A stretch of 44,303 nt of DNA, taken from an uncultured Acidobacteriia bacterium (GTDB lineage: Bacteria > Acidobacteriota > Terriglobia > Bryobacterales > Bryobacteraceae). Of this stretch, positions 12,509 through 27,445 are shown one piece after another. Both the position numbers and the translations under genes were made by a program. The stretch is from contig CAIYVZ010000027.1 in NCBI GenBank assembly GCA_903929755.1, positions 1-44,303 on the forward strand, given 5' to 3'. The notes beneath the pieces were generated by a model. That model did no database searches and had not been told where the DNA came from. It saw only the letters and a list, made by a program, of their open reading frames with translations. How positions within the stretch are numbered: position 1 is the stretch's first letter; every line of letters begins with the position of its first letter.

Positions 12509-12712
12509 ATGACCATCAGTGAAATCGTTGCGGTGGGAGCCGTTGTGCTCAGCATCGGTACGAACGTAGCTTTGTACGTGCACTTGAGTTCGACCATGAA
12601 CTCGCGGTTCGATTCCGTGGACCGGCATTTTGAATCGGTTGAGCGCCGTCTTGAGATGATTCAGGGCGACACGCATCACATGGATGTTCGCCTGACGAAG
12701 CTGGAAAATTAG
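12509..12712 (+). CDS. small membrane-anchored coiled-coil protein
   Basis: 67 residues: one hydrophobic segment (IVAVGAVVLSIGTNVALYVHL, about residues 6-26) followed by a heptad-rich tail (SRFDSVDRHFESVERRLEMIQ). An ATG at 12509 follows AGAGAAAG. The stop overlaps the convergent hpnB stop by four bases. Similar short TM-plus-coiled-coil proteins are widespread but uncharacterised; no function is assigned. Confidence 0.55.
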   Translation: MTISEIVAVGAVVLSIGTNVALYVHLSSTMNSRFDSVDRHFESVERRLEMIQGDTHHMDVRLTKLEN

Positions 12713-13836
12713 CTGTCCTGCACGCGGCCTTTCCAGACTCCACCTTTCCCACTCCAGTAATTCAGCGCTGATTCCACGGTCGCGATCAGGTAGAACACGG
12801 CTATCAGCGGGACGATGAGGGCTGTCCATTTGGGTGCCCCGAAAGTCCTGGCTGCGGGCAGGAACATGATGGCGCTAAGCAGCCAGGCGGCCAGGGTGGG
12901 GAAGCCTACGAGCGGATCCGGCGTGGACAGGAACCAGAGCGGCACCAGATAGGTGAAAAACATGCCTGCCAGCGTGCCAGCCAGGATGAGCGCTGAATGG
13001 TTCAGTTGCGCGAAGGCGGAACGGGCGATCATGGCTCGAATGACGGTGGAGTCGTCGTAGCCTCGGGTGGAATAGATGCCGCCGTCGGAGAGTCCCAGCC
13101 AGATACGGCCTCCAGCTGATTTCACGCGTCTCCCGAGGGCGCAATCATCTATCAGAGCGTCCCGATAGCTTTCGAGGCCTCCGAGCTTTTGGAAGGTGGA
13201 GCGGCGGATCAGCATGCAGCCTCCGGCGGCTGCCGCTGTACCGGGCTTATTCGCTACCCAACTCGGGGGATACAGCTTGAAGAAGAAGTAGACAAAGGCG
13301 GGGATCAGGAGCCTCTCCGCAGTTGACTGGCAGCGGAGATGTGCCATTACAGTAACGAGATCGTAGCCCTGTTCCGCTTGGGTGAGAAGGCGGGCGAGCA
13401 GATCCGGGTAGCGGTAGGCGATGTCGGCATCGGTGAAAAGGATGTATTCGGCGTCTTCGGGGATGGCTGTCATCGCCTGCTGCAAGGCCCAGAGCTTGCC
13501 TTTCCAACCAACTGGCCTCGGCTGGACTGGAATTATCGTGTCGGCTCCGGCCTTCCGGGCTACGGCAGCGGTGGCATCGGAGCTCTCGTCATCGGCAACG
13601 GTAATGTGGAGGCGGAAGGGGCCTTCCTGCAGGCGCAGGGACGCGACGGTTTGGGCCACGACTTCGGCTTCGTCGCGGGCCGGAATGACGACGGCGATGG
13701 TGGTTTGCGCGGTGTATTTCAGGGTGGGGCGGGGCAGGCGTTCGCGCAGAAGCCAGAACATTCCGCGGAATAAAAAGAGGTAAAGCCAGATCGCGAGGGA
13801 CAACCAGGCTATGGCTCGGGGCAGTAACAGGTCCAA
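12709..13836 (-). CDS. hpnB: family 2 glycosyltransferase, hopanoid-associated HpnB type
   Basis: Membrane-anchored GT2 enzyme. After an N-terminal hydrophobic segment come VVIPARDEAE, TVADDESSDAT, GWKGKLWALQQ, FTDADI (metal-binding Asp-x-Asp), AAAAGGCMLIRR and ALIDDCALGRRVK, then three C-terminal membrane helices. The pattern GWxGKLWA...TDADIA...AAGGCMLxRR...LIDDCAL is that of HpnB, a glycosyltransferase found with hopanoid genes; no other hopanoid gene is in the window. TTG start at 13836 has only a weak ribosome site but is needed to keep the first membrane segment. Starts 14 bases from the divergent zwf. Confidence 0.85.
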   Translation of the reverse strand: MDLLLPRAIAWLSLAIWLYLFLFRGMFWLLRERLPRPTLKYTAQTTIAVVIPARDEAEVVAQTVASLRLQEGPFRLHITVADDESSDATAAVARKAGADTIIPVQPRPVGWKGKLWALQQAMTAIPEDAEYILFTDADIAYRYPDLLARLLTQAEQGYDLVTVMAHLRCQSTAERLLIPAFVYFFFKLYPPSWVANKPGTAAAAGGCMLIRRSTFQKLGGLESYRDALIDDCALGRRVKSAGGRIWLGLSDGGIYSTRGYDDSTVIRAMIARSAFAQLNHSALILAGTLAGMFFTYLVPLWFLSTPDPLVGFPTLAAWLLSAIMFLPAARTFGAPKWTALIVPLIAVFYLIATVESALNYWSGKGGVWKGRVQDS

Positions 13837-15428: not shown

Positions 15429-16366
15429 TGTCGTGCGAGATTATTAAGCCCGACAGGATTCTGAAGGAACTGGGCGAGCTTTGGAGCGACACGGCGAAGC
15501 CGGAAGTGGAATCAAACGGCGACGGGTTATTACGCGCCTGCGCGATGACGCTGATCAGCTTTGTGGACGACGAGGAAGACCCGATGGCGCTGGGCGAGAC
15601 GCTGGCGCTGTTGATGCGGGAGCACCCGAGCCGGTCCATTGTGGTGCGGTTGCGCGAGGGCGAAGATTTTCTGGAATCGCGGGTTCTGGCGCAGTGCTGG
15701 AAGCCGTTTGGGCACCGGAAGCAGATTTGCTGTGAGCAAGTGGAACTGACGGCGACGATGAACCATTTGCAGGATGTGGCGTCAGTGGTCGGGCCGCTGG
15801 CGGTGCCGGATCTGCCTCGGTTGATTCTGTTACGGTCGGCGAGGGTAGTGCGCGCGGGGGCGCTGCGGAAGATTCTGCCTCTGGGTGACAAGATTATTGT
15901 GGATTCGGCGCGGCCTGGGGCTCCTGGGTTTGGGGAGTTGGGCGCGCTGCTGGATTCGGGGCAAATTGCGGGCGACCTGGCGTGGACGCGAATTACCGAA
16001 CTGCGGGCCCTAATCGCGCATCTGCTGGGCGATACGGTGCCGAAGTCCATCACGATTGAGTATGCGGGCCGGGAAGCGGGGCCGGAGACGCGGTATCTGG
16101 AGGCTTGGCTGGCGGGTGGTTTGCCGGAGACGGCGGTTCGGATCCGGGGTGCCGGCGGGGAAGGGAATGGTTGGCCAGCCGTTATCCGGATCGACGAGAC
16201 GACGGTGATTCGCCCCGGGGATGGTTGCGCGGAGATTGAGATGGGGCACCTGAAGGAGCACGTGAGTCTTGGGACCGGAAAAGATGACGAATTGCTGAAT
16301 GCGGAGCTGAAGATTGTGGTGCATGACCCCGTGTTTGAACGGGCGCTGAACCGGATTACCGCATGA
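15428..16366 (+). CDS. opcA: glucose-6-phosphate dehydrogenase assembly protein OpcA
   Basis: OpcA binds and activates Zwf, and in cyanobacteria mediates redox control of it. The sequence between zwf and pgl, about 312 residues, has the expected layout: N-terminal helical part with RACAMTLISFVDDEED, a central SRSIVVRLREGEDFLESRV, LPRLILLRSARVVRAG and a C-terminal beta-rich region. Identification rests on moderate sequence resemblance plus position. ATG at 15428 shares a base with the zwf stop; ATGA overlap with pgl. Confidence 0.82.
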   Translation: MSCEIIKPDRILKELGELWSDTAKPEVESNGDGLLRACAMTLISFVDDEEDPMALGETLALLMREHPSRSIVVRLREGEDFLESRVLAQCWKPFGHRKQICCEQVELTATMNHLQDVASVVGPLAVPDLPRLILLRSARVVRAGALRKILPLGDKIIVDSARPGAPGFGELGALLDSGQIAGDLAWTRITELRALIAHLLGDTVPKSITIEYAGREAGPETRYLEAWLAGGLPETAVRIRGAGGEGNGWPAVIRIDETTVIRPGDGCAEIEMGHLKEHVSLGTGKDDELLNAELKIVVHDPVFERALNRITA

Positions 16367-17076
16367 GTTCGGCATTGCGTGTATTTGCGGATGCCACGGC
16401 TGCGGCGGAAGCTTGCGGGGCCGAGATTCTGCAGGTTCTGGCGGCGGCTCGGAGCGCTCGCGGGGTGGCTACCCTGGCGGTCTCGGGGGGCAACACGCCC
16501 CGCATCATGTTTGAGTGGATGGCTCAACAGCCTTTCGACTGGGCCGGCGTTGAGTTGTTCTGGGTGGATGAGCGATGCGTCCCGATCGACGATACGCAGA
16601 GTAATTACAGGATGACCCGGCTGGCGTTACTGGATTCTTTGGGGTTACCCGCCGCAAAGGTCCATCGGGTGCGGACGGAGCTGGCTCCTGACGCGGCTGC
16701 TGCAGCTTATGCGGACGAGATTCGGGCGCTGCTGGGGGAGGCTCCGGTGTTTGACGTGATCCAGCGCGGTATGGGGCCCGATTCGCATACAGCGAGCTTG
16801 TTTCCGGGGGAACCGCTGATTGCGGATCGTAACGGGATTGCCGCTTTGGTATGGGTGCAGAAGTTCGGGCAGCATCGCGTGACTTTACTGCCGGGCGTGC
16901 TGGAACGGGCTCGGCTAACGGTGCATTTGGTGACAGGTGCGGACAAATGTGAGGCTTTGCAGGGCGTTTTGCATGGCCCTGTCGATTACACTGCACGGCC
17001 CGCGATGATCTCGTCGCCGGAGATGATTTGGTTTCTGGATGAAGCGTCCGCTGCGGGTGTCAAGCCGCTGGCATGA
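16363..17076 (+). CDS. pgl: 6-phosphogluconolactonase
   Basis: Hydrolyses 6-phosphogluconolactone, the product of Zwf. DevB/SOL-type signatures: LAVSGGNTPRIMFEWMA, ELFWVDERCVPIDDTQSNYRM, GMGPDSHTASLFPGEPL and GADKCEALQGVL. The usual GMGxDGHTAS motif has Ser in place of the second Gly. 237 residues, full length. Overlaps opcA upstream (ATGA) and the LodB-like flavoprotein downstream (ATGA), so four genes form one translationally linked unit. Confidence 0.92.
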   Translation: MSSALRVFADATAAAEACGAEILQVLAAARSARGVATLAVSGGNTPRIMFEWMAQQPFDWAGVELFWVDERCVPIDDTQSNYRMTRLALLDSLGLPAAKVHRVRTELAPDAAAAAYADEIRALLGEAPVFDVIQRGMGPDSHTASLFPGEPLIADRNGIAALVWVQKFGQHRVTLLPGVLERARLTVHLVTGADKCEALQGVLHGPVDYTARPAMISSPEMIWFLDEASAAGVKPLA

Positions 17077-18149
17077 CACTCGACGTCGCGATTATCGGGG
17101 GCGGGCCTGCCGGGGCTGCTGCTGCGATTTCGCTTCGTCAACTGATACCCAATGGGGCAATCGCGATCTTCGACGCGGGAGGCTCGGAGCAGGACGCCTG
17201 GCGTCCAGGGGAAACGCTGGCCCCTGGGGCTGCGTCGATCCTTCAGTCCCTGGGATGCTGGCCCGCTTTCCGCAGTGCCGGATTCCTGGAAAGCCGCGGC
17301 ACCCGTTCCGTGTGGGGTTCGCCGGAACCCTATGAAAACGAGTTCCTGTTTTCGATGCGCGGCAGCGGTTGGCGTCTGGATCGTGCGCGGTTCAACCATT
17401 TGCTTCGCACGTGTGCCGGGACAGCAGGCGCGGAAATCCACTATGAGGCCCCCTTGCGCGGGAGCGAATACGCCGATGGCTTATGGCATCTGCAGCTTTC
17501 GACAAGCGACTGCCGGGCTCGTTTCGTAATCGACGCTACCGGACGTTCCGCCACCTTTGCCGTGCAAGCCGGTGCGCAACGCCTCGCGGACGACAAACTG
17601 GCCGGGGTTTTCGTCCTGTTCGAGTCGGCGGAAACGGGCGATACGCTGATCGAGGCCGTTGAAGCGGGGTGGTGGTATTCGACTACCGTACCCGGAAACA
17701 CAGCCGTGGTCGCCTTCATGACCGACACAGATCTGATTCGCGAGATGCAGCTGAATACGCCCGCCCGCTGGAATGAACTTCTGGCGCACTCGACGCCCAC
17801 GAGAGAACGTCTGCAAAACGCGACGGCAAAGACCGCGCCTGCCATCTTTGCGGCTAATTCTCAGAGCCTGAGTCAGATGGCGGGACCTGGCTGGGTTGCC
17901 GCGGGGGATGCCGCCATGACCTTCGATCCGCTCTCCTCCCAGGGGATTCTGAAAGCCCTCCGATCCGGCAAACTGGCGTCCTTTGTAGCCGCCGACTACC
18001 TGCTGTATGGCAAGGCTTCATCCGCAAAATACGAAGTAATGGCGCGCGGCGAATACGCAGCATATTCGGCCACGAAAGCGGAGTATTACAGTCTGGAGCA
18101 GCGCTGGCCTGCGTCGCCATTTTGGGCGCGGCGACGCTCCAAACCCTGA
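17073..18149 (+). CDS. LodB/GoxB-like FAD-dependent oxidoreductase, quinone-cofactor maturation
   Basis: Flavoprotein of the halogenase/monooxygenase superfamily: N-terminal AIIGGGPAGAAAAISL, then WRPGETLAPGAASIL, WRLDRARFNHLL, FVIDATGRSA, AGWWYSTTVP and GDAAMTFDPLSSQGI. These are the features of LodB/GoxB, which is needed to form the cysteine tryptophylquinone of LodA-type oxidases. A LodA homologue is encoded convergently at 19297-21306, supporting the assignment. 358 residues. Unusually it is the last gene of the zwf-opcA-pgl unit (ATGA overlap with pgl) instead of lying next to its partner. No halogenase WxWxIP motif was seen. Confidence 0.8.
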   Translation: MTLDVAIIGGGPAGAAAAISLRQLIPNGAIAIFDAGGSEQDAWRPGETLAPGAASILQSLGCWPAFRSAGFLESRGTRSVWGSPEPYENEFLFSMRGSGWRLDRARFNHLLRTCAGTAGAEIHYEAPLRGSEYADGLWHLQLSTSDCRARFVIDATGRSATFAVQAGAQRLADDKLAGVFVLFESAETGDTLIEAVEAGWWYSTTVPGNTAVVAFMTDTDLIREMQLNTPARWNELLAHSTPTRERLQNATAKTAPAIFAANSQSLSQMAGPGWVAAGDAAMTFDPLSSQGILKALRSGKLASFVAADYLLYGKASSAKYEVMARGEYAAYSATKAEYYSLEQRWPASPFWARRRSKP

Positions 18150-18159
18150 ACTCCGCTAC

Positions 18160-18873
18160 TCAGCCCTGGCAGATCCACTCCGCCACCTGTTTCGTCGCAT
18201 CAGCCACATCCCAGGCCTTCTTCCGCTCCTCCACCATGCCCGGATTATCGCGAATCTCCGAATCATCCGGATCACCGCAATGGAACGGAGGCTGCGGGTT
18301 GTATTGCATGGCCAACTGGCACTGGCGAGCCACGTCGAGACCTAACACCAGGGACACGATGTACATGGAGACATCGAGACCAGCCGAGATTCCGGCGCTG
18401 GTGATGCGGTTATCGCTTTTAATATAGCGGCGGTAGTCGTTGACCACTTTGACCGGAAACAGCCGCAGGACATCTTTATACGCCCAGTGGGTAGTGGCGT
18501 CGTAACCATTGAGGAGCCCTGCACCCGCCAGCAACAGCGCTCCGGTACAGACCGAGCAAACGAGGTGTGCGTCGGGTGCCCGGGCAATCAGAAAGTCCAG
18601 CACCGGATTGCTGCCCGGATGGCCTTTCAGCAGTACGTCAACGGGCGTGGCGCCGCCGGGAACCATCAGGACATCCAGCTTCGGACAAGTATCAAAGGTG
18701 GTGTGCGGCTTGATGGAAACGCCCTCAAATGAGGTGACGGGAGCCAGTGTCTCCGCCACCAGGAAGCGAGTCATTCCGGCGAACGTGAAGGTCTGGAAAG
18801 GCCCCAGCACGTCCAGCGAATCGAAGCCGTCGTACAGGACGATGCCGACTGTAAGGGCCTTGGCTTTAGGCAA
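18160..18873 (-). CDS. DJ-1/PfpI family protein, isonitrile-hydratase-like
   Basis: Class-I glutamine-amidotransferase-like fold. VGIVLYDGFDSLDVLGP opens the domain, VPGGATP follows, and the nucleophile elbow is VCTGALLLAGAGLL with Cys109; ATTHWAYKD and RITSAGISAGLD complete the GlxA/InhA-type pattern. Known relatives hydrate isonitriles to N-formamides or act as regulator domains; no AraC helix-turn-helix is fused here. The TTG at 18873, preceded by AGGGG, is chosen because it overlaps the upstream stop by eight bases; the frame is open to 18930. 237 residues. Last gene of the leftward oxidase cluster. Confidence 0.82.
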   Translation of the reverse strand: MPKAKALTVGIVLYDGFDSLDVLGPFQTFTFAGMTRFLVAETLAPVTSFEGVSIKPHTTFDTCPKLDVLMVPGGATPVDVLLKGHPGSNPVLDFLIARAPDAHLVCSVCTGALLLAGAGLLNGYDATTHWAYKDVLRLFPVKVVNDYRRYIKSDNRITSAGISAGLDVSMYIVSLVLGLDVARQCQLAMQYNPQPPFHCGDPDDSEIRDNPGMVEERKKAWDVADATKQVAEWICQG

Positions 18874-19300
18874 GGGGCCCCTGCCAGACGGCGATCCAGT
18901 TGGCGACGACGCCGGCAGGTGAAGTTCCACCTGAGCCGCTGGCGTGCGGAATGGTGCGGACGATGGTGCCCGTCATCGCCGGAACCTGATTGACTCCGTT
19001 CGGCCAGGGCTTCATCACGTAGCCGCTGTAATCGTAGATCCACTCCTCGCCGCCTACCAGACCCTTGCCCTGGAATCGAACAGACCAGGGGTCTCCGTAG
19101 TTGATGGATCCATTCAGGGCCAGCGACCACCCGGGCCCGCCGATGGTCCCTTCAAATACTCCCATGGGGGCCTCCCTGATGGTGATGGTGCCGCGGCCAA
19201 ATTCCAGGTCGTTGAAGGCCGTGGAAAGGTCGGGATCGCTTAAGAAACTTCGATAGGTCCAGTTGCCCGTCAGGCTGCCAATATTCGGTGTCTGGCTCAT
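18866..19300 (-). CDS. small protein of the quinone-oxidase cluster, unknown function
   Basis: 144 residues, no signal peptide, no cysteine-rich motif. Gly/Trp-rich alternating strands (GNWTYRSFLSD, GTITIREAPMGVFEGTIGG, WSLALNGSINYGDPWSVRFQG, EEWIYDYSGYV, MTGTIVRTIPH) suggest a small beta-barrel such as an avidin- or calycin-like fold; that is inference from the strand pattern alone. Four-base overlap with the lodA-like gene upstream and eight-base overlap with the PfpI gene downstream indicate joint translation with the oxidase. Confidence 0.7.
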   Translation of the reverse strand: MSQTPNIGSLTGNWTYRSFLSDPDLSTAFNDLEFGRGTITIREAPMGVFEGTIGGPGWSLALNGSINYGDPWSVRFQGKGLVGGEEWIYDYSGYVMKPWPNGVNQVPAMTGTIVRTIPHASGSGGTSPAGVVANWIAVWQGPLA

Positions 19301-21306
19301 GAATTTCCTCCCAGTTGATTTTCGGTAAGTATGAAAGCCGGGTTATCCGGCGTAGAGCCCGGGGCGGGGACCACAAAGCCCAGTTGCCACCAGATGCTGA
19401 CCATGGTGATGTCGCCCTGATTCGAATTGGGCGTGGGGGACCATGCTTTGCCGTTAACCATGTTCGGACGGTGTGCGGGCCACCAGTAAGTGGTCCATGT
19501 ATTGTTGGGAATCTTATCGCCGGTGGAGTCGGGATACACCTGATTCCAGAGCTCGTAATTTACGTCGATGTCCTGGGTTGAACACTCGTTGAAATCCGAT
19601 TGCCAGGGAATGCCGCTGTACTTCGTGATGTCGCCAGGCTCCAGACCTTTCGAAATTAGTGACGGCGTATCGGCGTCGCCAATAATTACTGGTTGGCTGA
19701 GGGAGCCGGGGACCGGGGTGGGAGCCGTATTGATGCGGTAAGCACTCTTATAAATAGCCGGATTGCGAATAATCCAGGAAGTCTCGCCGCCGGGGCAGAA
19801 TGCGCCCCCGAGGCCGTTACCGAGGACCCCGCGGTCGAGCGCGGCTGCTTCCGCTGGACCAGGCGGCGTAATGTTCTCCAATTGCTCGTTGATGAACTTA
19901 CCTTCGGCCCACTGCCGCAGCAGGAACAGCATGGTGTCGGTGAGGCAGAGGAATTTCGACGGGAGGTCGTTGGTGATCGGGTTATCGCCGCACAGCAGGG
20001 GCATGCCAAAGAAGGTCCGGCCTGGTACGCTGCTATCCACATAAAGCCTGTTTTCCTGGCCGGGCTTGCGAAGCACGTGGTAGAGGAACATGCGGCGATT
20101 GGCGCGATTTTTGCGATCCTGCGGGTCCTCGCCGGCAAACGGTGGAATAGAAAGTATGGTGGGGTCGAAGTTACCGCCGGAATTCTTGCTGGTCTCATGG
20201 GGATCCGCACCGTTGATGGGATCGACGTCGCACACGAACTGGAAGACGTTCGGACGCTGTAACACCGGCCAAATATCGCGCCAGAAGTAGGGATAGTATT
20301 CGTTGTTGAACTTTCCGCCGGAATAAATCCGTGGTTCGTAGTTGAAGCTGCGGACCGCCACATCGTAAATGGCTTCGTCCATCGTCACCATGTCCACAAT
20401 CTGCGGGGCATAACGGGGATAGCCGGTGATGACCCACGCGGATTCATTCACGCCGATGGTCATCTGGGTTTTCTGCTGCACCGGAGCCCCATCGATGGTG
20501 GCGACCTGAATAACAAGACTCGCATTGACGGGGCCATCGGAAGTATCGTCGAACCAGCCGTCGTTGTTGGCGTAGGTCTGGATGGAAGGCTCGCCGACTC
20601 CGCTCCTTGCCGAACCGGAGTTGCCGAGACCCCCGAGGACCAGCAGGCGGTTGTGTTTATGCGTATCGGTGGTGCTGATGAGTTGGCCCAGGGTGGTGAT
20701 GGGGTTCGGCGTGATAGCTGCAGGCGGGAACGTCTCCGGCGTACCTGCCGATGTGCCTTTGGCGAACGCGGCTTTGCGCTGCTTCGGATTCTTCCATGCA
20801 ACTGTTCGCGGGCCGGGATCAATGATCAGTTCCTGGCGGTGGGAGGCTCCGGTGATGTCAGCATTTCGGAGGGGATGTGTGGGGCTGTAACCGTGCGCCC
20901 CTTCCAGTTGCTGGAATTCGTACCAACTCGCCTTTTTGTTGGCCAGATAGACAGTCCAGTTGACATCGACAAGGGTTCCGGTGACGAGCTGGCCGGAAGA
21001 TCTTGTGGGGGCAATTTTCGCGGCGGTAACGGTGTCGCCGAGCTTGAGTTCCCGGCCCTGCGGGTTCTCCTCGTCATACACGTAGATGCGAAAACGCGCC
21101 GCCTGCCGGCGAATCTGGTTATTGGCGTCCTTATACTGCGAAACGGGCTGTTCCACGCCCTTCACCAGGATGGGATTGCCATCCATATCGCAATCGATGG
21201 GCGCTGCTCCAGTGGCCTCCGGAGCGATATAGAAAGAGTTGGGGCTATTGCCCAGTCTCGCGATGCCGATCGCGGGATGGATCTTATAAGTAGGTGCTGA
21301 AGTCAT
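19297..21306 (-). CDS. LodA/GoxA-like cysteine tryptophylquinone (CTQ) amino-acid oxidase
   Basis: Oxidises an amino acid to an aldehyde or keto acid with release of ammonia and hydrogen peroxide, using a CTQ cofactor made from its own side chains. N-terminal signature YKIHPAIGIARLGNSP is diagnostic. The cofactor residues are both visible: Cys in GGAFCPGGE and Trp in IPWQSDFNECS, 64 residues apart (residues 504 and 568 from this start), close to the 65 of Marinomonas LodA. The ATG at 21306 follows AAGGTG; an in-frame TTG at 21330 overlaps the tyrosinase stop. 669 residues, normal. Substrate (Lys, Gly or other) cannot be told. Confidence 0.9.
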   Translation of the reverse strand: MTSAPTYKIHPAIGIARLGNSPNSFYIAPEATGAAPIDCDMDGNPILVKGVEQPVSQYKDANNQIRRQAARFRIYVYDEENPQGRELKLGDTVTAAKIAPTRSSGQLVTGTLVDVNWTVYLANKKASWYEFQQLEGAHGYSPTHPLRNADITGASHRQELIIDPGPRTVAWKNPKQRKAAFAKGTSAGTPETFPPAAITPNPITTLGQLISTTDTHKHNRLLVLGGLGNSGSARSGVGEPSIQTYANNDGWFDDTSDGPVNASLVIQVATIDGAPVQQKTQMTIGVNESAWVITGYPRYAPQIVDMVTMDEAIYDVAVRSFNYEPRIYSGGKFNNEYYPYFWRDIWPVLQRPNVFQFVCDVDPINGADPHETSKNSGGNFDPTILSIPPFAGEDPQDRKNRANRRMFLYHVLRKPGQENRLYVDSSVPGRTFFGMPLLCGDNPITNDLPSKFLCLTDTMLFLLRQWAEGKFINEQLENITPPGPAEAAALDRGVLGNGLGGAFCPGGETSWIIRNPAIYKSAYRINTAPTPVPGSLSQPVIIGDADTPSLISKGLEPGDITKYSGIPWQSDFNECSTQDIDVNYELWNQVYPDSTGDKIPNNTWTTYWWPAHRPNMVNGKAWSPTPNSNQGDITMVSIWWQLGFVVPAPGSTPDNPAFILTENQLGGNS

Positions 21307-21322
21307 GGTATGGGTCACCTTT

Positions 21323-23362
21323 TTAGTCAAAGAAACTCAGCGAAACGCCGTCGAGGTGGAGAGCGTCGGTTGCGGCCGAGCCGTCCAGGTTTAGAACTAC
21401 GAGGGTGACATGGAAATCTGTCGCGCCCAGGGCCTTCAGCCGGGCCACCGTAGTGGTGGCATCCACGCGGAATTCGGCTGGGGTCTTGTGAGGGCGATGC
21501 CTGTGATCGAACTTCCGGGGCTGCGTTGCCGCGGGGGTATCGCAGTGGCCTGGCCCGCCAATGCACAGGCCTGTGAACATGTTCAGCATGCCGATGTAGT
21601 TCGGGTTGCCAGCGGTTTTCGTCTTCACGTCGGCATCCGCCTGGTTCAGGAAGATACGAATAAAGAAGCCGGAGCGGGTGACGTACCGAACCCGATGCAG
21701 GCGAACTTCAGCGCGGCGGTGGGTAGCCGCAACCATCTTGTGCACTTTGGCGGGGGCGGAGACGAAGCGCGTAACCGGGCCCTGCGTGGTGGCGGGGAAG
21801 ACGTGCGATGCCTGCGCGTACTGGTAGCCCAGTTTGGCAAGGCTGGCCGTATCCGCAACTGTCATCGACCAGGGGGCAAGCATTGCCGCCGGATCGTCGG
21901 GGCCCGCATTCGGATGCCGGGTTTGCCACTCGTACCAGAGCCGGTCGCAATTGGAGTGGTGCGCCCAAAAAATGGGATCGAAGGCGGTTCGTCCCGCGTT
22001 CACCATGTCGCCGAATTGCGGATTTTTGGTGTTCATCGGCTCGGTGGACTTGCCGAAGTTTGGATTCTGACCACCAGAGAAATTGTGAATCAGATTGTGG
22101 ATGTTTTCGAGGGCACCGAAGTAGTGATTATCCTGCGGCCCGCTGGCGAAGGCGAAGAAATCATCCAGCGCCAGAATACGGTCCACGTCCTCGGGCCTCG
22201 GGTAGGCTTCAAACAGTAAGGCGCTGTCGCCTCCGGGCCAGCGCTGGTAATGCCACAAAGGGTTGATGTCGGAAAGGACATGGATGATGGCGTCATCACT
22301 TTGGGGATCCTTGCCCCACTGGATTCCCGCTTTGACAAAAAGCGCGTTGCCGGAACAGAAGAGCTTGTCTCGCACGGTGGCGAGTTTGGTGAGGACGGCA
22401 GCGGGGACTCCGAGTGCTTTCAATCGGTCAATGCCCGGCTGGTCAATCCAGCACTTGTAGGCGTCGGGGATAACGCCGTTGTCCATGGGGGCTTTGGAGG
22501 CCATGTCCTGCAGGGAGATTTCCAGGTTTTCGCGATCCGCAGCCCAGTCCCAGTAGGGCAGGGTTACGGTGGGGTCAATGTCCTGGAGTTGTTGCTCAAA
22601 GTAGTACAGATAGGCGCGGTGCCAGGTTAGGAACTGCTCCCAGGAATGTTGGCACTGGTTGGCGTGGATACGAGCCCAGTAACCGAAGCTGCGCTCATCC
22701 TGTTCGAATTTATCCAGCGATTTCATCTTCGCCACGGCGGCGCGAAATCGTTTGAGTTCGTCAGGCGTCAGGAAGTTGATATTCTTGCGGATCCTGGCGC
22801 CGCCAAGGTCGTTGTGGAAGGCATTGGCAGGCCCGTCATGCTGCTCGTGAGCAATGTTTCCCGCGGCAAGGCCGGCGAGCCGTTTGTGATGGGAAGTGGA
22901 ATCGCTGGTGTTGGGCGGGGTGTCGGTTTCGGGGCAACCGTCATCAATCCAGGCGGAGATGAAGGCGATGTCTTCCAGGGAAACGGGCGTACCGCCCCAG
23001 GGTAACTGGGGGAATTGGGTTCCGTCAAACGGGGCGTGGCCCTTCAGACCGATAATGAGCCCTGATGCGGCGCCTCTGCCCTCTTGATACCCAGCGGGAG
23101 GCGCAGCCGCCTCGGAGGCGCTTCCGCAGCATGAACCCGTAACCGCGGCCGTCTGTTCACCGGAAGGCGCAGCAATCATGCGGACGCCATAGAGGCAGAC
23201 GTTCAACAGTTGCGCATGGGGCAGGGTCCAGAACCGGTCGTAACCCTGATAGCTGGGGTGGACCGGGCCGGAGGCTGCGTCCAAAATCTGCTTTACATGA
23301 TCGTAACGCGACCACTGGTGAGCCTTGCTTTTGCGTTTTGAGGTATCGTCTGACATATTCAC
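21323..23362 (-). CDS. tyrosinase/polyphenol oxidase with extra N-terminal domain
   Basis: Type-3 copper enzyme oxidising phenols to o-quinones. CuA ligands H233, H239, H248 (HANQC-x-H...WHRAYL) and CuB ligands H422, H426, H468 (HNLIH, FDPIFWAHH) are all present. Cys237-x-His239 matches the thioether Cys-x-His of fungal tyrosinases. About 150 residues precede the catalytic domain, with DRFWTLPHAQLLNVCLYGVRM, RGAASGLI, PFDGTQFPQLPWGG and AFISAWIDDGCP, recalling haem-less cytochrome-c-like modules. A further beta-rich tail of about 180 residues follows. GTG at 23362, or ATG at 23356 with GGAAG. No signal peptide, so cytoplasmic or exported by another route. Confidence 0.9.
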   Translation of the reverse strand: MNMSDDTSKRKSKAHQWSRYDHVKQILDAASGPVHPSYQGYDRFWTLPHAQLLNVCLYGVRMIAAPSGEQTAAVTGSCCGSASEAAAPPAGYQEGRGAASGLIIGLKGHAPFDGTQFPQLPWGGTPVSLEDIAFISAWIDDGCPETDTPPNTSDSTSHHKRLAGLAAGNIAHEQHDGPANAFHNDLGGARIRKNINFLTPDELKRFRAAVAKMKSLDKFEQDERSFGYWARIHANQCQHSWEQFLTWHRAYLYYFEQQLQDIDPTVTLPYWDWAADRENLEISLQDMASKAPMDNGVIPDAYKCWIDQPGIDRLKALGVPAAVLTKLATVRDKLFCSGNALFVKAGIQWGKDPQSDDAIIHVLSDINPLWHYQRWPGGDSALLFEAYPRPEDVDRILALDDFFAFASGPQDNHYFGALENIHNLIHNFSGGQNPNFGKSTEPMNTKNPQFGDMVNAGRTAFDPIFWAHHSNCDRLWYEWQTRHPNAGPDDPAAMLAPWSMTVADTASLAKLGYQYAQASHVFPATTQGPVTRFVSAPAKVHKMVAATHRRAEVRLHRVRYVTRSGFFIRIFLNQADADVKTKTAGNPNYIGMLNMFTGLCIGGPGHCDTPAATQPRKFDHRHRPHKTPAEFRVDATTTVARLKALGATDFHVTLVVLNLDGSAATDALHLDGVSLSFFD

Positions 23363-23694
23363 GCTTCCGGATACAGAGTGTCGTCGGGTTTTCGGCGATC
23401 ACAAACAATTGAGTTACGGGTGCATGTACGGGTGAACCTGCGCGTGGATCCGAGCAGGGTAATGATGGCTGAAGGAAGGAAAAGCACGGCAATTAAAAGG
23501 GGCAGGGACCAGGGTCCGGAGAGGATGGTTCGTGAAGCGACACCAAGCCCGAGAGCCCCAGCCCACGCAGCCAGGCACAGTGGGCACTTGGGGATGATCA
23601 CCGCGAGCACAGCCGCCCCGATGGTGGGTATATGACGCAAAAAAGACGCGGAGGCCACGCTCTTGGTTACACGAGGTTGAGCTGATTCATGCAT
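23359..23694 (-). CDS. small membrane protein with PKCPLC motif, upstream of tyrosinase
   Basis: About 111 residues with two hydrophobic segments (IPTIGAAVLAVIIPKCPLCLAAWAGALGLG and LPLLIAVLFLPSAIITLL). A Cys-x2-Cys lies at the end of the first membrane helix, as in MerC-like and other small metal-handling membrane proteins. GTGA overlap with the tyrosinase gene suggests a role with that copper enzyme, for example copper supply; this is inference. ATG at 23694 chosen; an in-frame TTG at 23721 has a less favourable position. The C-terminal tail holds two further Cys. Confidence 0.65.
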   Translation of the reverse strand: MHESAQPRVTKSVASASFLRHIPTIGAAVLAVIIPKCPLCLAAWAGALGLGVASRTILSGPWSLPLLIAVLFLPSAIITLLGSTRRFTRTCTRNSIVCDRRKPDDTLYPEA

Positions 23695-23751
23695 TGAATA
23701 TTTGCTGCCCGTCGCCGACAATCATGACGACAAGTTTGGACCCACCACGGA

Positions 23752-23780
23752 AATATACAGGACATGTCGCTGCGTGTAAA
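23752..23780 (-). promoter_or_regulatory. promoter of the tyrosinase/LodA-like operon
   Basis: On the minus strand TTTACA (23775-23780) and TATATT (23752-23757) are separated by exactly 17 bases, a good sigma-70-type promoter. It lies about 57 bases upstream of the ATG at 23694. Confidence 0.6.
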
Positions 23781-23814
23781 GTGTTTTCTTTCGAGGCTGT
23801 TGTTGCCGATAGTA

Positions 23815-23828
23815 CAAGAATATTCTTG
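23815..23828. promoter_or_regulatory. perfect 14-bp palindrome, candidate shared operator
   Basis: CAAGAATATTCTTG is a perfect palindrome placed between the two divergent promoters and overlapping the -35 box of the multicopper oxidase gene. A third half-site follows (CTTG CGCA CAAG, to 23836). The position suits a repressor or a copper-responsive regulator; the regulator is not identified and none is encoded nearby. Confidence 0.5.
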
Positions 23829-23854
23829 CGCACAAGATGCCCCTCGGGTATACT
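23826..23854 (+). promoter_or_regulatory. promoter of the multicopper oxidase gene
   Basis: TTGCGC (23826-23831) and TATACT (23849-23854) are 17 bases apart, about 46 bases before the ATG at 23900. The -35 box overlaps the palindrome at 23815-23828. Confidence 0.55.
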
Positions 23855-23899
23855 CGCAGATCAGTAAGGTGGCAGTTCAGTGCCATCAGGGAGCCTTAC

Positions 23900-26062
23900 A
23901 TGAGAGTAACGTCAGTTCAGATCGTGATTGCCGCCGCAGTCCTGGCCGGTTGTAGCCAGCCCACGGCCACCACACCTCCGGCGAAGCTTCCGGCAGGCTA
24001 CCATGCCTTCCAGGCACCGCCCAGGTTTACGGAAACAGGCGGTACCCAGCCCGCTTCTCTGGAGCTGAAAACGGCGGCTCAACCCGGCTGTCAGCCGGAT
24101 GGCGAGGTATCCAGAAATGGAAATATCGTCACGGTTTCTCTGAAAGTGATGCTGGCGAAGTTTGGGATGAATAATCCCGCGAACCCAGGTGGCGCGGATG
24201 ATCAGGTAATCCTGCGCTCCTACGGTGGCTGTAAAGCCGGGCCGGTTATTGAAGTAAGACCCGGCAATACCCTGCGCGTGAATCTGAATAATACGCTCGC
24301 CGCCCAGCCGGATCCCAGCTGCAATATTGCGGGTCCCGGGTGCTTTAATACCGTGAATCTGCACACTCACGGCCTCCACGTATCCCCCGCCGGCAACAGC
24401 GACAATGTGCTGCTGAACATAGCTCCGCAGACAAAGTTTCCGTATGAATACAATATTCCGGAAGATCATCCGTCGGGAACATTCTGGTATCACGCGCATC
24501 GGCATGGATCCACAGCAGCGCAGGTGGCGAGCGGCGAATCCGGCGTATTGCTGATTCGTGGGAACCGCCCGTATACTCCTCCCACACCTGTCAACCCGCA
24601 CCCCATCGCTGACATCGATACGATTCTGCATGACGCCGCCGGTAAGCCCATGAAGGCGCAGTTGTTCCTGCTCCAGCAAATCCCTTACGCCTGTTTCGTT
24701 GACGATCCGAAAGCTCCCTGGCAGCAGATCTATACCACTGCGGGGCTCTATAACGCGAAGAGTCCGGGAACGAATCCGCCCGGTGGCATCTCGCCGGCGA
24801 ATGCTCCGTGGATCTGTCCGCCGAGCACTCCCGCGGCTCCGGTCACGGCGGGTGCGGTAGAGAACTTTGGCTTACAGCTGAACTCAGCCACCATTTGGGA
24901 TACCAATGGGAGATTTACCAGCGTGAACGGTGTGGTTCAGCCCACTGCCATAATTCCCGCCGGTGAGATCCAGCGTTGGCGCTTTATCCATGCCGGGATT
25001 CACGACACGATCAATCTCCAGATTGTACGGTCCGCCGTGCAGACGGGCGAGCAGCTAACGGGCAATCGTCAGCAGCAGCGGGCGGCGGTGAAGAACCTTT
25101 GTCCCACCACGCCGGGGCCTTCCGGCATTGTTGCTCCGGGACTGATCCCGCAGTTCGAGATAGCGGCCGATGGTCTGACCCGCACAAAGATCAGAACGTA
25201 CAGCGGGCCCGCGGTGAGCGGTTCCATCGGTTCCAACTATATGCAACCGGGCTACCGCAGCGACGTGCTGGTGGTGTTCCCTTCCGATGGCTACTACTGC
25301 CTGCTGAATCAGGCCGCACCGGCCAGTGAAAGAGCCAACAACGGCGGGGCAGGGCAAGGCCCCGGCGGTCAGGGGCCCTCACAGCCCCAGTTGCTCGCCT
25401 ACATTAAGGTGGAAGGTGGCCAACCCGTTACGGGTGATCTGGAAACTTACCTGAGGCAGGCACTATATGACGGAAATCCGACGCTTCCGGCGCCCGTTCG
25501 CGATGGCCTGAAGGCTGGCGATACCACGCCGTGGGCTCCGTTCACCGAATTGGCGCCGCCTACCCTCGGCCACGATCAGGTGGCCAGTTTCAAGATTGTC
25601 GCTGGCCCCAAGTTCCAAATCAACGACTTATCCTATGACCCCGGCAGGGTGGATTTCACCCGCCAGGTGAATACGACAGACGACTGGCTGCTGACTTCCA
25701 CTGGCGAGCCCCATATCTTCCACATCCACGTGAATCCGTTCGAGGTGGTGGACGTAATTGATCAATCGACCAATAAGTCCATCTTCGACGCCAACGGAAA
25801 GTGCATTCTGCCGCCAGACAAAGAAGGTCTGGTGAACCAATACTGCAGCATGTACCACACGTTCCGGGACACTGTTTTTGTGGAGAACGGCTTCCAGGTT
25901 CGTGTCCGCACCCATTACGACCGTTACATTGGCGAGTTCGTGATCCACTGCCATATCCTGGACCACGAGGACGGCGGCATGATGCTGAATATCAACATCG
26001 TGCCGGACGCCAGCGCGCCGAATGGCGGGATCGGAATGCCCGGCATGAAACACGGGCACTGA
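23900..26062 (+). CDS. lipoprotein multicopper oxidase (laccase-like)
   Basis: Couples one-electron oxidation of phenols or metal ions to reduction of O2 to water. All four copper motifs are intact: HTHGLH (155-160), WYHAHRHG (197-203), HIFHIH (605-610) and HCHILDHEDGGMM (683-695) with Cys684 as type-1 ligand and Met694 as the axial ligand. The lipobox LAGC ends the signal peptide at Cys18, so it is anchored in a membrane facing the periplasm or outside. The ATG at 23900 has GGGAG seven bases upstream. 720 residues is long for a laccase; a Gln/Gly-rich insert (about 475-500) and a His/Met-containing tail (MPGMKHGH) add to the length. Confidence 0.92.
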   Translation: MRVTSVQIVIAAAVLAGCSQPTATTPPAKLPAGYHAFQAPPRFTETGGTQPASLELKTAAQPGCQPDGEVSRNGNIVTVSLKVMLAKFGMNNPANPGGADDQVILRSYGGCKAGPVIEVRPGNTLRVNLNNTLAAQPDPSCNIAGPGCFNTVNLHTHGLHVSPAGNSDNVLLNIAPQTKFPYEYNIPEDHPSGTFWYHAHRHGSTAAQVASGESGVLLIRGNRPYTPPTPVNPHPIADIDTILHDAAGKPMKAQLFLLQQIPYACFVDDPKAPWQQIYTTAGLYNAKSPGTNPPGGISPANAPWICPPSTPAAPVTAGAVENFGLQLNSATIWDTNGRFTSVNGVVQPTAIIPAGEIQRWRFIHAGIHDTINLQIVRSAVQTGEQLTGNRQQQRAAVKNLCPTTPGPSGIVAPGLIPQFEIAADGLTRTKIRTYSGPAVSGSIGSNYMQPGYRSDVLVVFPSDGYYCLLNQAAPASERANNGGAGQGPGGQGPSQPQLLAYIKVEGGQPVTGDLETYLRQALYDGNPTLPAPVRDGLKAGDTTPWAPFTELAPPTLGHDQVASFKIVAGPKFQINDLSYDPGRVDFTRQVNTTDDWLLTSTGEPHIFHIHVNPFEVVDVIDQSTNKSIFDANGKCILPPDKEGLVNQYCSMYHTFRDTVFVENGFQVRVRTHYDRYIGEFVIHCHILDHEDGGMMLNINIVPDASAPNGGIGMPGMKHGH

Positions 26063-26071
26063 CGCGGTAGC

Positions 26072-27445
26072 TTAGTCGAAAAGCGTGCCGCGCCCGAGGA
26101 GATTCTTCGGGTCGAGGCGCGCTTTTACCGAGCGCATCAGCGCGATTTCATGTTCGCTGAACATGAGCGGAAGCAGGTCCTTCTTCCGCTTGCCTAAACC
26201 ATGTTCCGCTGAAACGGTGCCGCCCATCGCGACGGCCTGGCGGGCGAATTCCATCATCAGAGCCTTCGCACGAACCCACTCTTCCTGGTTGGCAGGCAGA
26301 ATGTTGGCGTGAAGATGCGCGTCGCCGATGTGGCCGAAGATCACGTACTGGCCGGGGAATTCGCGGTCGAGCGCTTCGCGATAGATCTTCAGCATGTCGC
26401 CGTTGCGCTTGATCGGCACCGCGAAATCCGAACCCATCTTGGTGAGGCCCTTGCGACGGATCAGGTCGTTCACCGCTTCCGGTACGGAGTGCCGAAACTT
26501 GCGGAACTTTTCGCGGTCGGCGGCGGAGGTGGCGAACCAGGAGGTATCAAGAGCCTTTGACTTCCCCAGCCTAATCAGCCAGGCGTCTTCCGCATCCTCG
26601 CCATCGTTCACTTCCTGTTCAATCAGGATGGCGGCACGGGCACTTTTCGGGATTTCAGAGTAACGGGGACGGAGCAGATCAAGTGAAGCCGCGTCCAGGT
26701 ACTCCAGCATGCGGAGACCACGAACATCATGCCATTCCTCCACGGCGGCCAGAGCCGCGTCATCAGTGGTATAAAAAACGACTCCCGTGAACAGCTCTTT
26801 CGGCATCCGCATCAGGACGACTTCCGCTTCCACTACCACGCCGAGCGTGCCTTCGGAGCCGATGAACAGATCGATGTAATCCATCCCCGGGCGCAGGAAG
26901 TAACCGGCGGTGTTCTTGGTGGTCTTTGGACCGGGGATTTCTGGCAATTCAATGGGCGGTTTTTCGCCACGGCGGAGGCGGATCTTTTCGCCTGAGGCCA
27001 GGATCACCTGGAGCGCGCGCACATGGCGACGGGTATCGCCATACATGAAACTGCGGGAGCCGCTGGCGTTGGTGGCAACAGTGCCGCCAAGCGAAGCTCC
27101 CCATTCAGTGGGGTCGGGAGCGTAGTATTGGCGCGACGGCGTGGCGGCTGTCAGGAGGTCGCGCAGCAGGACTCCCGCTCCGCACGTGGCAAAGCCGGAG
27201 CCGATATCCACCGTGGTCAGTCTTTCCAGGGAAAGTACCCAGCCGCCCTGGGGGACGCGGCCGCCAGTGACGCCGGTCCCGGCGCCGGATATAGTGACGG
27301 GCTGTAATTCCACGTTGGCCTGGCGCATGACGCCGCAGACTTCATAGGCATCAACAGGCGTGAAAACCTGCTCTGCAGTGCCGGTGTAGCCGGAGGCGTC
27401 AATCAAATACGATGAATCGGGCGGAAGAATAGGAGTTGGGGTCAT
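26072..27445 (-). CDS. FAD-linked oxidase, GlcD/D-lactate dehydrogenase type
   Basis: PCMH-type FAD domain (VTISGAGTGVTGGRVPQGG, FATCGAGVLLRDLL, ASLGGTVATNASGSRSF) followed by the FAD-oxidase C-terminal domain (HIGDAHLHANILP, GGTVSAEHGLGKRKKDLL). This is the glycolate oxidase GlcD/D-2-hydroxyacid dehydrogenase family, oxidising a D-2-hydroxy acid. 457 residues, normal. It lies ten bases after the DUF4159 gene and is the last of the six-gene leftward run. No GlcE or GlcF partner is in the window, so electron acceptor and substrate are open. Confidence 0.88.
   Translation of the reverse strand: MTPTPILPPDSSYLIDASGYTGTAEQVFTPVDAYEVCGVMRQANVELQPVTISGAGTGVTGGRVPQGGWVLSLERLTTVDIGSGFATCGAGVLLRDLLTAATPSRQYYAPDPTEWGASLGGTVATNASGSRSFMYGDTRRHVRALQVILASGEKIRLRRGEKPPIELPEIPGPKTTKNTAGYFLRPGMDYIDLFIGSEGTLGVVVEAEVVLMRMPKELFTGVVFYTTDDAALAAVEEWHDVRGLRMLEYLDAASLDLLRPRYSEIPKSARAAILIEQEVNDGEDAEDAWLIRLGKSKALDTSWFATSAADREKFRKFRHSVPEAVNDLIRRKGLTKMGSDFAVPIKRNGDMLKIYREALDREFPGQYVIFGHIGDAHLHANILPANQEEWVRAKALMMEFARQAVAMGGTVSAEHGLGKRKKDLLPLMFSEHEIALMRSVKARLDPKNLLGRGTLFD

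What the first reader, a model, noticed from the sequence alone, without database searches (positions are those of the whole stretch)
17073..26062. One block holding a CTQ oxidase with its maturase, a tyrosinase and a laccase-like oxidase
Seen: LodA-like (Cys504/Trp568 conserved), LodB-like, tyrosinase with six Cu ligands, small Cys-x2-Cys membrane protein, multicopper oxidase with four Cu motifs, plus a PfpI enzyme and an unknown 144-residue protein. Known: Marinomonas mediterranea makes all three oxidase types (LodA, PpoB, PpoA) but LodA is an antibacterial peroxide source there. Inference: a phenol-to-quinone oxidation system combined with amino-acid oxidation, possibly for melanin or cross-linked polymer formation, or hydrogen peroxide-based antagonism.
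Basis: partly seen in the sequence, partly recalled or inferred. Interest (0 to 1): 0.75.

Follow-up and report, generated by a model that had tools for sequence, protein, structure and literature searches.

The report
Amine-oxidase and tyrosinase gene module
A soil-type bacterium carries, as a 9-kb block absent from a close relative, a known but unexplained gene set that pairs a quinone-cofactor amine or amino-acid oxidase with a copper tyrosinase; the pairing recurs in many unrelated bacteria, so the two enzymes very probably work together.

The parts
17054..26077 (.). block without counterpart in same-genus genome G016, where pgl and glcD are convergent and about 175 bp apart
   Evidence: blastn of the window against L187 stops at 17053 and resumes at 26078; one genome only
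17073..18149 (+). LodB-like FAD maturase; its ATG overlaps the stop of pgl (16363-17076); convergent to the lodA run
   Evidence: NF038171 242.6 bits (cut-off 400, not reached), QhpG model 154.5 bits (cut-off 240, not reached); sequence at 17073
18160..18930 (-). DJ-1/PfpI-family protein, optional member
   Evidence: PF01965 8.4e-20; Cys128 in 17 of 17 rows
18866..19300 (-). 144-aa protein, predicted beta-barrel
   Evidence: A1 alignment of 44 rows; AF2 pLDDT 89.1, pTM 0.82; fold comparisons
19297..21330 (-). LodA-like oxidase; CTQ residues Cys583 and Trp617; Asp579 aligns with LodA 512
21323..23362 (-). tyrosinase with a heme-less cytochrome-c-like N-terminal stretch and conserved C-terminal Cys600/His606/Cys607
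   Evidence: PF00264; conservation; model pLDDT 88.1; hhalign to PSCyt1 segments 97.6%
23359..23721 (-). small membrane protein with PKCPLC motif; candidate metal (Cu) carrier, by inference
   Evidence: CxxC in 21 of 21 aligned rows; window protein hits only DUF2162 below cut-off; relative in L051 hits MerC below cut-off, E 0.0019
23752..23780 (-). sigma-70-like promoter candidate (10 of 12) upstream of the five-gene run; weak
   Evidence: 2 sites found against a shuffle mean of 3.9
23837..26062 (+). multicopper oxidase with a lipobox-like N-terminus (LAGC), divergent from the run
   Evidence: PF07731/PF07732; best PDB hits are laccases, among them Thermus 2xu9; N-terminus

Best explanation
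SHOWN: a member of the LodA group ID module, a LodA-like protein with the CTQ residues, a LodB-like maturase and a type-3 copper tyrosinase, here with a small predicted beta-barrel protein, in a 9-kb block that one same-genus genome lacks. INFERRED: tyrosinase and LodA are cytosolic partners acting on the same kind of substrate, a phenol bearing a primary amine (tyramine, dopamine or a related amino acid). The tyrosinase oxidises the ring to an o-quinone; LodA, with its CTQ installed by LodB, oxidatively deaminates the amine and releases H2O2; the barrel holds or hands over the reactive aromatic intermediate; the CxxC membrane protein supplies copper; the exported multicopper oxidase, where present, deals with phenols outside. 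The purpose would be use or detoxification of phenolic amines.
For: One clade: 58 rows (window included), 55 tyr-linked and 3 on truncated contigs, of which L038 does show a tyrosinase fragment. Of 57 clade loci besides the window, 55 have at least 300 bp upstream: 53 have the tyrosinase immediately upstream on the same strand; L068 (PfpI in between) and L071 (LodA split in two ORFs) also have it. Of 25 LodA rows outside the clade, 23 have at least 2.5 kb upstream; only L059's second LodA has a tyrosinase on its stretch, 7.3 kb off on the other strand and belonging to the clade LodA there. Mantel lodA-tyr r 0.933 over 52 rows, 0 of 999 permutations. CTQ residues and Cu ligands kept. Small gene directly after lodA in 42 of 57 clade loci. 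No signal peptides by a crude scan. Precedent for a non-secreted tyrosinase that lowers sensitivity to phenolics: Streptomyces MelD (passages in PMC2855505, and PMC9454253). CanSTYR from 'Ca. Sulfopaludibacter' SbA4, whose genome holds tyr-lodA-lodB (L036), has kcat 19-20 per s and Km 0.6-0.8 mM on tyramine and dopamine, but Km 3.3 mM on tyrosine (PMC10515480 passages).
Against: No activity is known for any group ID LodA; lysine oxidase was not detected in Saccharophagus degradans (ID) cultures (unpublished, cited in PMC4417212). SbA4 has a second tyrosinase-like gene, so CanSTYR may not be this one. Marinomonas LodA is secreted in stationary phase (PMC2855505 passage), so the lack of a signal peptide does not prove a cytosolic place; the scan also flags 16 of 54 LodB, which shows how crude it is. 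The Mantel test does not remove the hosts' own kinship. The small gene is not directly after lodA in 15 of 57 clade loci (in L035, L062 and L081 it lies elsewhere in the locus), and is missing from the whole locus in 6 of 31 long loci, among them all 4 Bradyrhizobium loci here, unlike the four Bradyrhizobium of the 2015 survey. No call tests the substrate.
Confidence: 0.35

Rival explanations
1. Peroxide-based antagonism: LodA is released, oxidises an amino acid and makes H2O2 against competitors, as LodA/AlpP do; the copper oxidases add toxic quinones.
For: The clade stands beside a LodA equivalog, L098 Nostoc (NF038172 1114 bits; SH-aLRT 83, long branch); LodA Cys448 is kept in 57 of 60 rows; Marinomonas LodA is secreted.
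Against: Window LodA is below the equivalog cut-off (348.6 against 600); no signal peptide seen; no lysine oxidase detected for a group ID strain (PMC4417212).
Confidence: 0.2
2. Extracellular melanin or polymer formation by tyrosinase plus multicopper oxidase, with LodA making aldehydes for cross-links.
For: Full type-3 Cu site with Asn after the first CuB histidine (H422-N423, 61 of 61); multicopper oxidase with export signal.
Against: No export signal seen in 56 tyrosinases and 62 LodA; multicopper oxidase found in 9 of 31 long loci.
Confidence: 0.12
3. The tyrosinase is a co-maturase: it does the first, copper-dependent hydroxylation of LodA Trp617 (or modifies the barrel), instead of acting on a free phenol.
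For: Tyrosinase in all checkable clade loci; the first hydroxylation of Trp in LodA is thought autocatalytic and appears copper-dependent, and LodB acts on mono-hydroxy-Trp (PMC7876137 passage).
Against: LodA of other groups have no tyrosinase beside them (23 checkable rows), and LodB is the maturase known for LodA (PMC4417212); a complete phenol-oxidase site is kept.
Confidence: 0.07
4. Neighbours without shared function, kept together only by transfer as a block.
For: The block is discrete against G016.
Against: The tyr-lodA order recurs in Acidobacteriota, Pseudomonadota, Bacteroidota, Cyanobacteriota, Gemmatimonadota and Vulcanimicrobiota.
Confidence: 0.04

Closest known systems
LodA group ID operons (Campillo-Brocal et al. 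2015, PMC4417212; e.g. Bradyrhizobium japonicum USDA6)
   Same: lodA-like + small gene of about 140 aa + lodB + tyrosinase + multicopper oxidase
   Different: here lodB is convergent and overlaps pgl; PfpI follows the small gene; a CxxC membrane protein heads the run
Marinomonas mediterranea LodA/LodB, PpoB1/PpoB2, PpoA (PMC2855505 passages)
   Same: the same three oxidase classes, regulated together by PpoS; a membrane Cu-transfer protein (PpoB2) in the tyrosinase operon
   Different: separate loci there; PpoB2 is COG5486, the protein here is not shown to be; LodA equivalog score not reached
Quinohemoprotein amine dehydrogenase (QHNDH)
   Same: CTQ; its maturase QhpG is related to LodB by profile; the small barrel resembles part of the alpha subunit in fold
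   Different: different CTQ protein and electron acceptor; no sequence match for the barrel
Streptomyces MelD tyrosinase (through passages of PMC2855505 and PMC9454253)
   Same: non-secreted tyrosinase
   Different: no CTQ oxidase partner mentioned in the passages seen

Membership tests
LodA-like family | LodA_N and LodA_C domains | tested here: met
   PF17990 190 bits, PF18417 140 bits, both over cut-off
LodA-like family | Cys and Trp of CTQ | tested here: met
   Cys583/Trp617 align with LodA 516/581; 60 of 60 rows from tyr-linked loci
LodA group ID | clade of lodA linked to tyrosinase | tested here: met
   window inside the 58-row clade, SH-aLRT 99; the 2015 sequences themselves were not in the tree
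LodA group ID | small gene (138-142 aa in the 2015 set) directly after lodA | tested here: met
   144-aa ORF overlapping the end of lodA
LodA group ID | tyrosinase and multicopper oxidase genes alongside | tested here: met
LodA group ID | lodB downstream in the same orientation | tested here: not met
   lodB is convergent; so is that of the nearest relative L035, the only other case among the clade loci. The 2015 survey also reports opposite orientation in fungi and Actinoplanes
LodA group ID | enzyme activity | not testable with these tools
   no activity is known for the group (PMC4417212)
L-lysine 6-oxidase LodA (equivalog) | NF038172 score of at least 600 | tested here: not met
   348.6 bits
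LodB maturase (equivalog) | NF038171 score of at least 400 | tested here: not met
   242.6 bits
Tyrosinase (PF00264) | domain, six His Cu ligands and fold | tested here: met
QHNDH alpha subunit barrel (small protein) | fold | tested here: inconclusive
QHNDH alpha subunit barrel (small protein) | sequence similarity | tested here: not met
   no QHNDH family among Pfam matches of 44 members up to E 1; profile search of PDB gave one unrelated hit, E 0.77
PpoB2 / COG5486 copper chaperone (membrane protein) | same protein family | tested here: inconclusive
   Pfam gave only a sub-threshold DUF2162 hit; COG was not searched

The most novel reading that the evidence does not exclude
The tyrosinase is not a phenol-pathway enzyme but a dedicated partner of the CTQ enzyme: a copper oxygenase that hydroxylates the CTQ tryptophan (or an aromatic residue of the barrel), with the barrel as a stand-alone counterpart of a QHNDH alpha-subunit domain, giving another assembly route for tryptophylquinone enzymes.
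Probability: 0.07. Interest if true: 0.85.

Novelty: new member of a known kind. Interest (0 to 1): 0.5.

Why it matters
The combination was noted in 2015 and no function was found in the searches made here. The data show that the tyrosinase link belongs to one LodA clade and is present in every member that could be checked, across six phyla, give a predicted fold for the unknown small protein, and narrow the question to testable ones: does the tyrosinase share LodA's substrate, or help build its cofactor? Named strains carry it (Edaphobacter modestus, Bradyrhizobium rifense, Flavobacterium profundi, Aquimarina litoralis).

Tried and rejected
Foldseek of the barrel gave no PDB match at E<=0.001 and none among viral structures; the VIA list is a second look at Foldseek's candidates. 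That the small protein is a tyrosinase caddie like MelC1 was considered; MelC1 is not in the 50 rows shown, which excludes nothing. Sequence searches for the small protein gave nothing credible. Promoter and terminator scans are below the shuffle means. No tRNA, no repeat pair at the two block ends, GC 0.57-0.63 without contrast, no transposase or integrase among the seven genes: how the block moved is unknown.

Results against or limiting the reading. In a phylum sample of 396 genomes the LodA search rings in 9, the tyrosinase search (E<=1e-40, at most 2 candidates scored a genome) in the own genome only, and the small protein in 2. The second, G529, has its small gene 294 bp from a contig end, with no LodA, LodB or tyrosinase on the 15 kb fetched: either the small protein can stand apart or the contig is broken there. 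Of the other 8 LodA genomes one, G403, was looked at: lodA-lodB without tyrosinase in 18 kb. G008 has lpd-, lipB- and sucB-like genes after pgl (names recalled), so the site varies and the empty site rests on G016 alone. My multicopper count (9 of 31) disagrees with the 2015 statement that all operons with the small gene include one; my profile started from the window protein and may miss distant ones. The hhalign match of the tyrosinase N-terminus used four PSCyt1 segments chosen because their proteins had hit.

Rows dropped: L036 from the tree and the Mantel test (same genome as L023, judged by equal contig length and coordinates). Of 94 LodA ORF hits, 12 are not in the tree: L036, short or truncated ones, the first piece of L071, and L033. 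Long-locus counts use 31 of 57 clade loci (at least 8 kb upstream and 6 kb downstream). Small genes without any tyrosinase hit: L069, L080, L105, all on contigs that begin inside lodA.

Papers: PMC4417212 abstract, passages and sections 6, 7, 9; PMC10515480 passages and section 6; PMC7876137, PMC4699246, PMC2855505, PMC3948610, PMC9454253 passages only; all others search listings only.
Full report
Gene content and layout. On the minus strand five ORFs follow each other: membrane protein (23359-23721), tyrosinase (21323-23362, 4-base overlap), LodA-like (19297-21330; overlaps the tyrosinase only if the TTG is the start), 144-aa protein (18866-19300, 4-base overlap), PfpI (18160-18930, overlap depends on its start). 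lodB (17073-18149) is on plus and its ATG overlaps the stop of pgl, the last gene of zwf-opcA-pgl (opcA from Pfam; zwf and pgl recalled from the sequence). The multicopper oxidase (23837-26062) is on plus, divergent. So the block is not one operon.

CTQ residues. In the PDB alignment LodA 516 faces Cys583 and 581 faces Trp617. Cys583, Trp617 and Asp579 stand in 60 of 60 LodA rows from tyr-linked loci (SbA4 twice, L059's second LodA included).

The block. In G016 (same genus) DNA similarity stops at window 17053 and resumes at 26078; there pgl and glcD are convergent and about 175 bp apart. Of 19 genomes of the genus, LodA matches occur in 4: the own genome, G003 (51% over a contig-end fragment), and G004 and G018, whose LodA lie outside the clade. 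The nearest LodA (70%) is in an Acidobacteriales bacterium, L035, which shares the convergent lodB. This fits gain by transfer, but loss in G016 is not excluded; no mobility genes, tRNA or end repeats were found.

Linkage. The capped scan of genome contigs gave 79 loci; 12 stretches from relatives were added. A quick tree of 83 LodA rows puts all 55 tyr-linked rows, with 3 on truncated contigs, in one clade (SH-aLRT 99) beside a LodA equivalog (L098, NF038172 1114 bits, branch support 83 and a long branch). Of 57 clade loci besides the window, 55 have at least 300 bp upstream; 53 have the tyrosinase immediately upstream on the same strand, and L068 and L071 have it too. In the 31 loci with long flanks: tyr 31, lodB 31, small 25, CxxCH protein 18, membrane protein 15, multicopper oxidase 9, PfpI 7. 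Of 25 LodA rows outside the clade, 23 with at least 2.5 kb upstream, none has its own tyrosinase, small, PfpI or multicopper gene; L059's second LodA lies beside a clade locus. Distances co-vary: lodA-tyr 0.933 (52 rows), lodA-small 0.872 (42), lodA-lodB 0.864 (46), tyr-small 0.849 (40), none of 999 permutations reaching them; host kinship was not removed. In 151 genomes, own included, LodA rings in 11 and full-length clade-type tyrosinases in 4, all with the close LodA; the small protein in G000 and G048 only. The phylum sample and its exception G529 are told under Tried and rejected.

The tyrosinase. Cu ligands, Cys237-x-His239 and H422-N423 are conserved in all rows with letters there; Cys600, His606, Cys607 in 61 of 61 suggest a further metal or disulfide site. 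Residues 78-149 align with the second half of PSCyt1 cytochrome-c domains (hhalign 97.6%, one small profile; PSCyt1 named), with Cys-Cys near the place of CxxCH, so heme binding is unlikely.

Compartment. A crude hydrophobicity scan flags 0 of 56 tyrosinases, 0 of 62 LodA and 0 of 44 small proteins, but 17 of 21 multicopper oxidases and 21 of 23 CxxCH proteins; it also flags 16 of 54 LodB, probably for their FAD-binding start. Marinomonas LodA is nevertheless secreted and Marinomonas GoxA has a Tat signal, so this is suggestive only.

Literature. Searches showed the gene combination only in PMC4417212, which calls the clade group ID, reports 10 genomes with the small gene, and leaves the function open. 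PMC7876137 says that the first Trp hydroxylation appears copper-dependent in LodA. CanSTYR kinetics are in PMC10515480.

Verdict. A real and recurrent functional pair, already described in outline; function not known. Best guess: joint oxidation of a phenolic amine (0.35). Antagonism (0.2) and polymer formation (0.12) remain; the co-maturase reading (0.07) is the boldest not excluded.

Noticed in passing
window 16363-18149: lodB starts inside the stop of pgl, so it may be read as the last cistron of zwf-opcA-pgl; in G016 pgl has no such follower.
   Followed up: partly
L070 5946-7565 and 22 other loci: A protein of 510-600 aa with a C-terminal CxxCH sits beside the module in 23 loci, 18 of them Bacteroidota; the one representative scanned has no Pfam match. 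Weaker relatives lie beside four non-clade LodA loci (L097, L102, L104, L113).
   Followed up: partly
LodA of L024, L081-L085, L089-L092, L094, L095, after window residue 405: These LodA (865-944 aa) have an insertion in the middle of the protein, longest unbroken run 70-110 aa.
   Followed up: no
L149 294-710 (G529): A small barrel gene near a contig end without tyrosinase or LodA, next to a 682-aa ORF weakly related to the CxxCH family.
   Followed up: partly
L079 3919-4545: A 209-aa protein with a plastocyanin-like YTCSLHPGE stretch (likeness recalled) recurs in 4 acidobacterial loci of the module.
   Followed up: no
window 12709-13836: HpnB hopene-associated glycosyltransferase, over the NCBIfam cut-off.
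   Followed up: no
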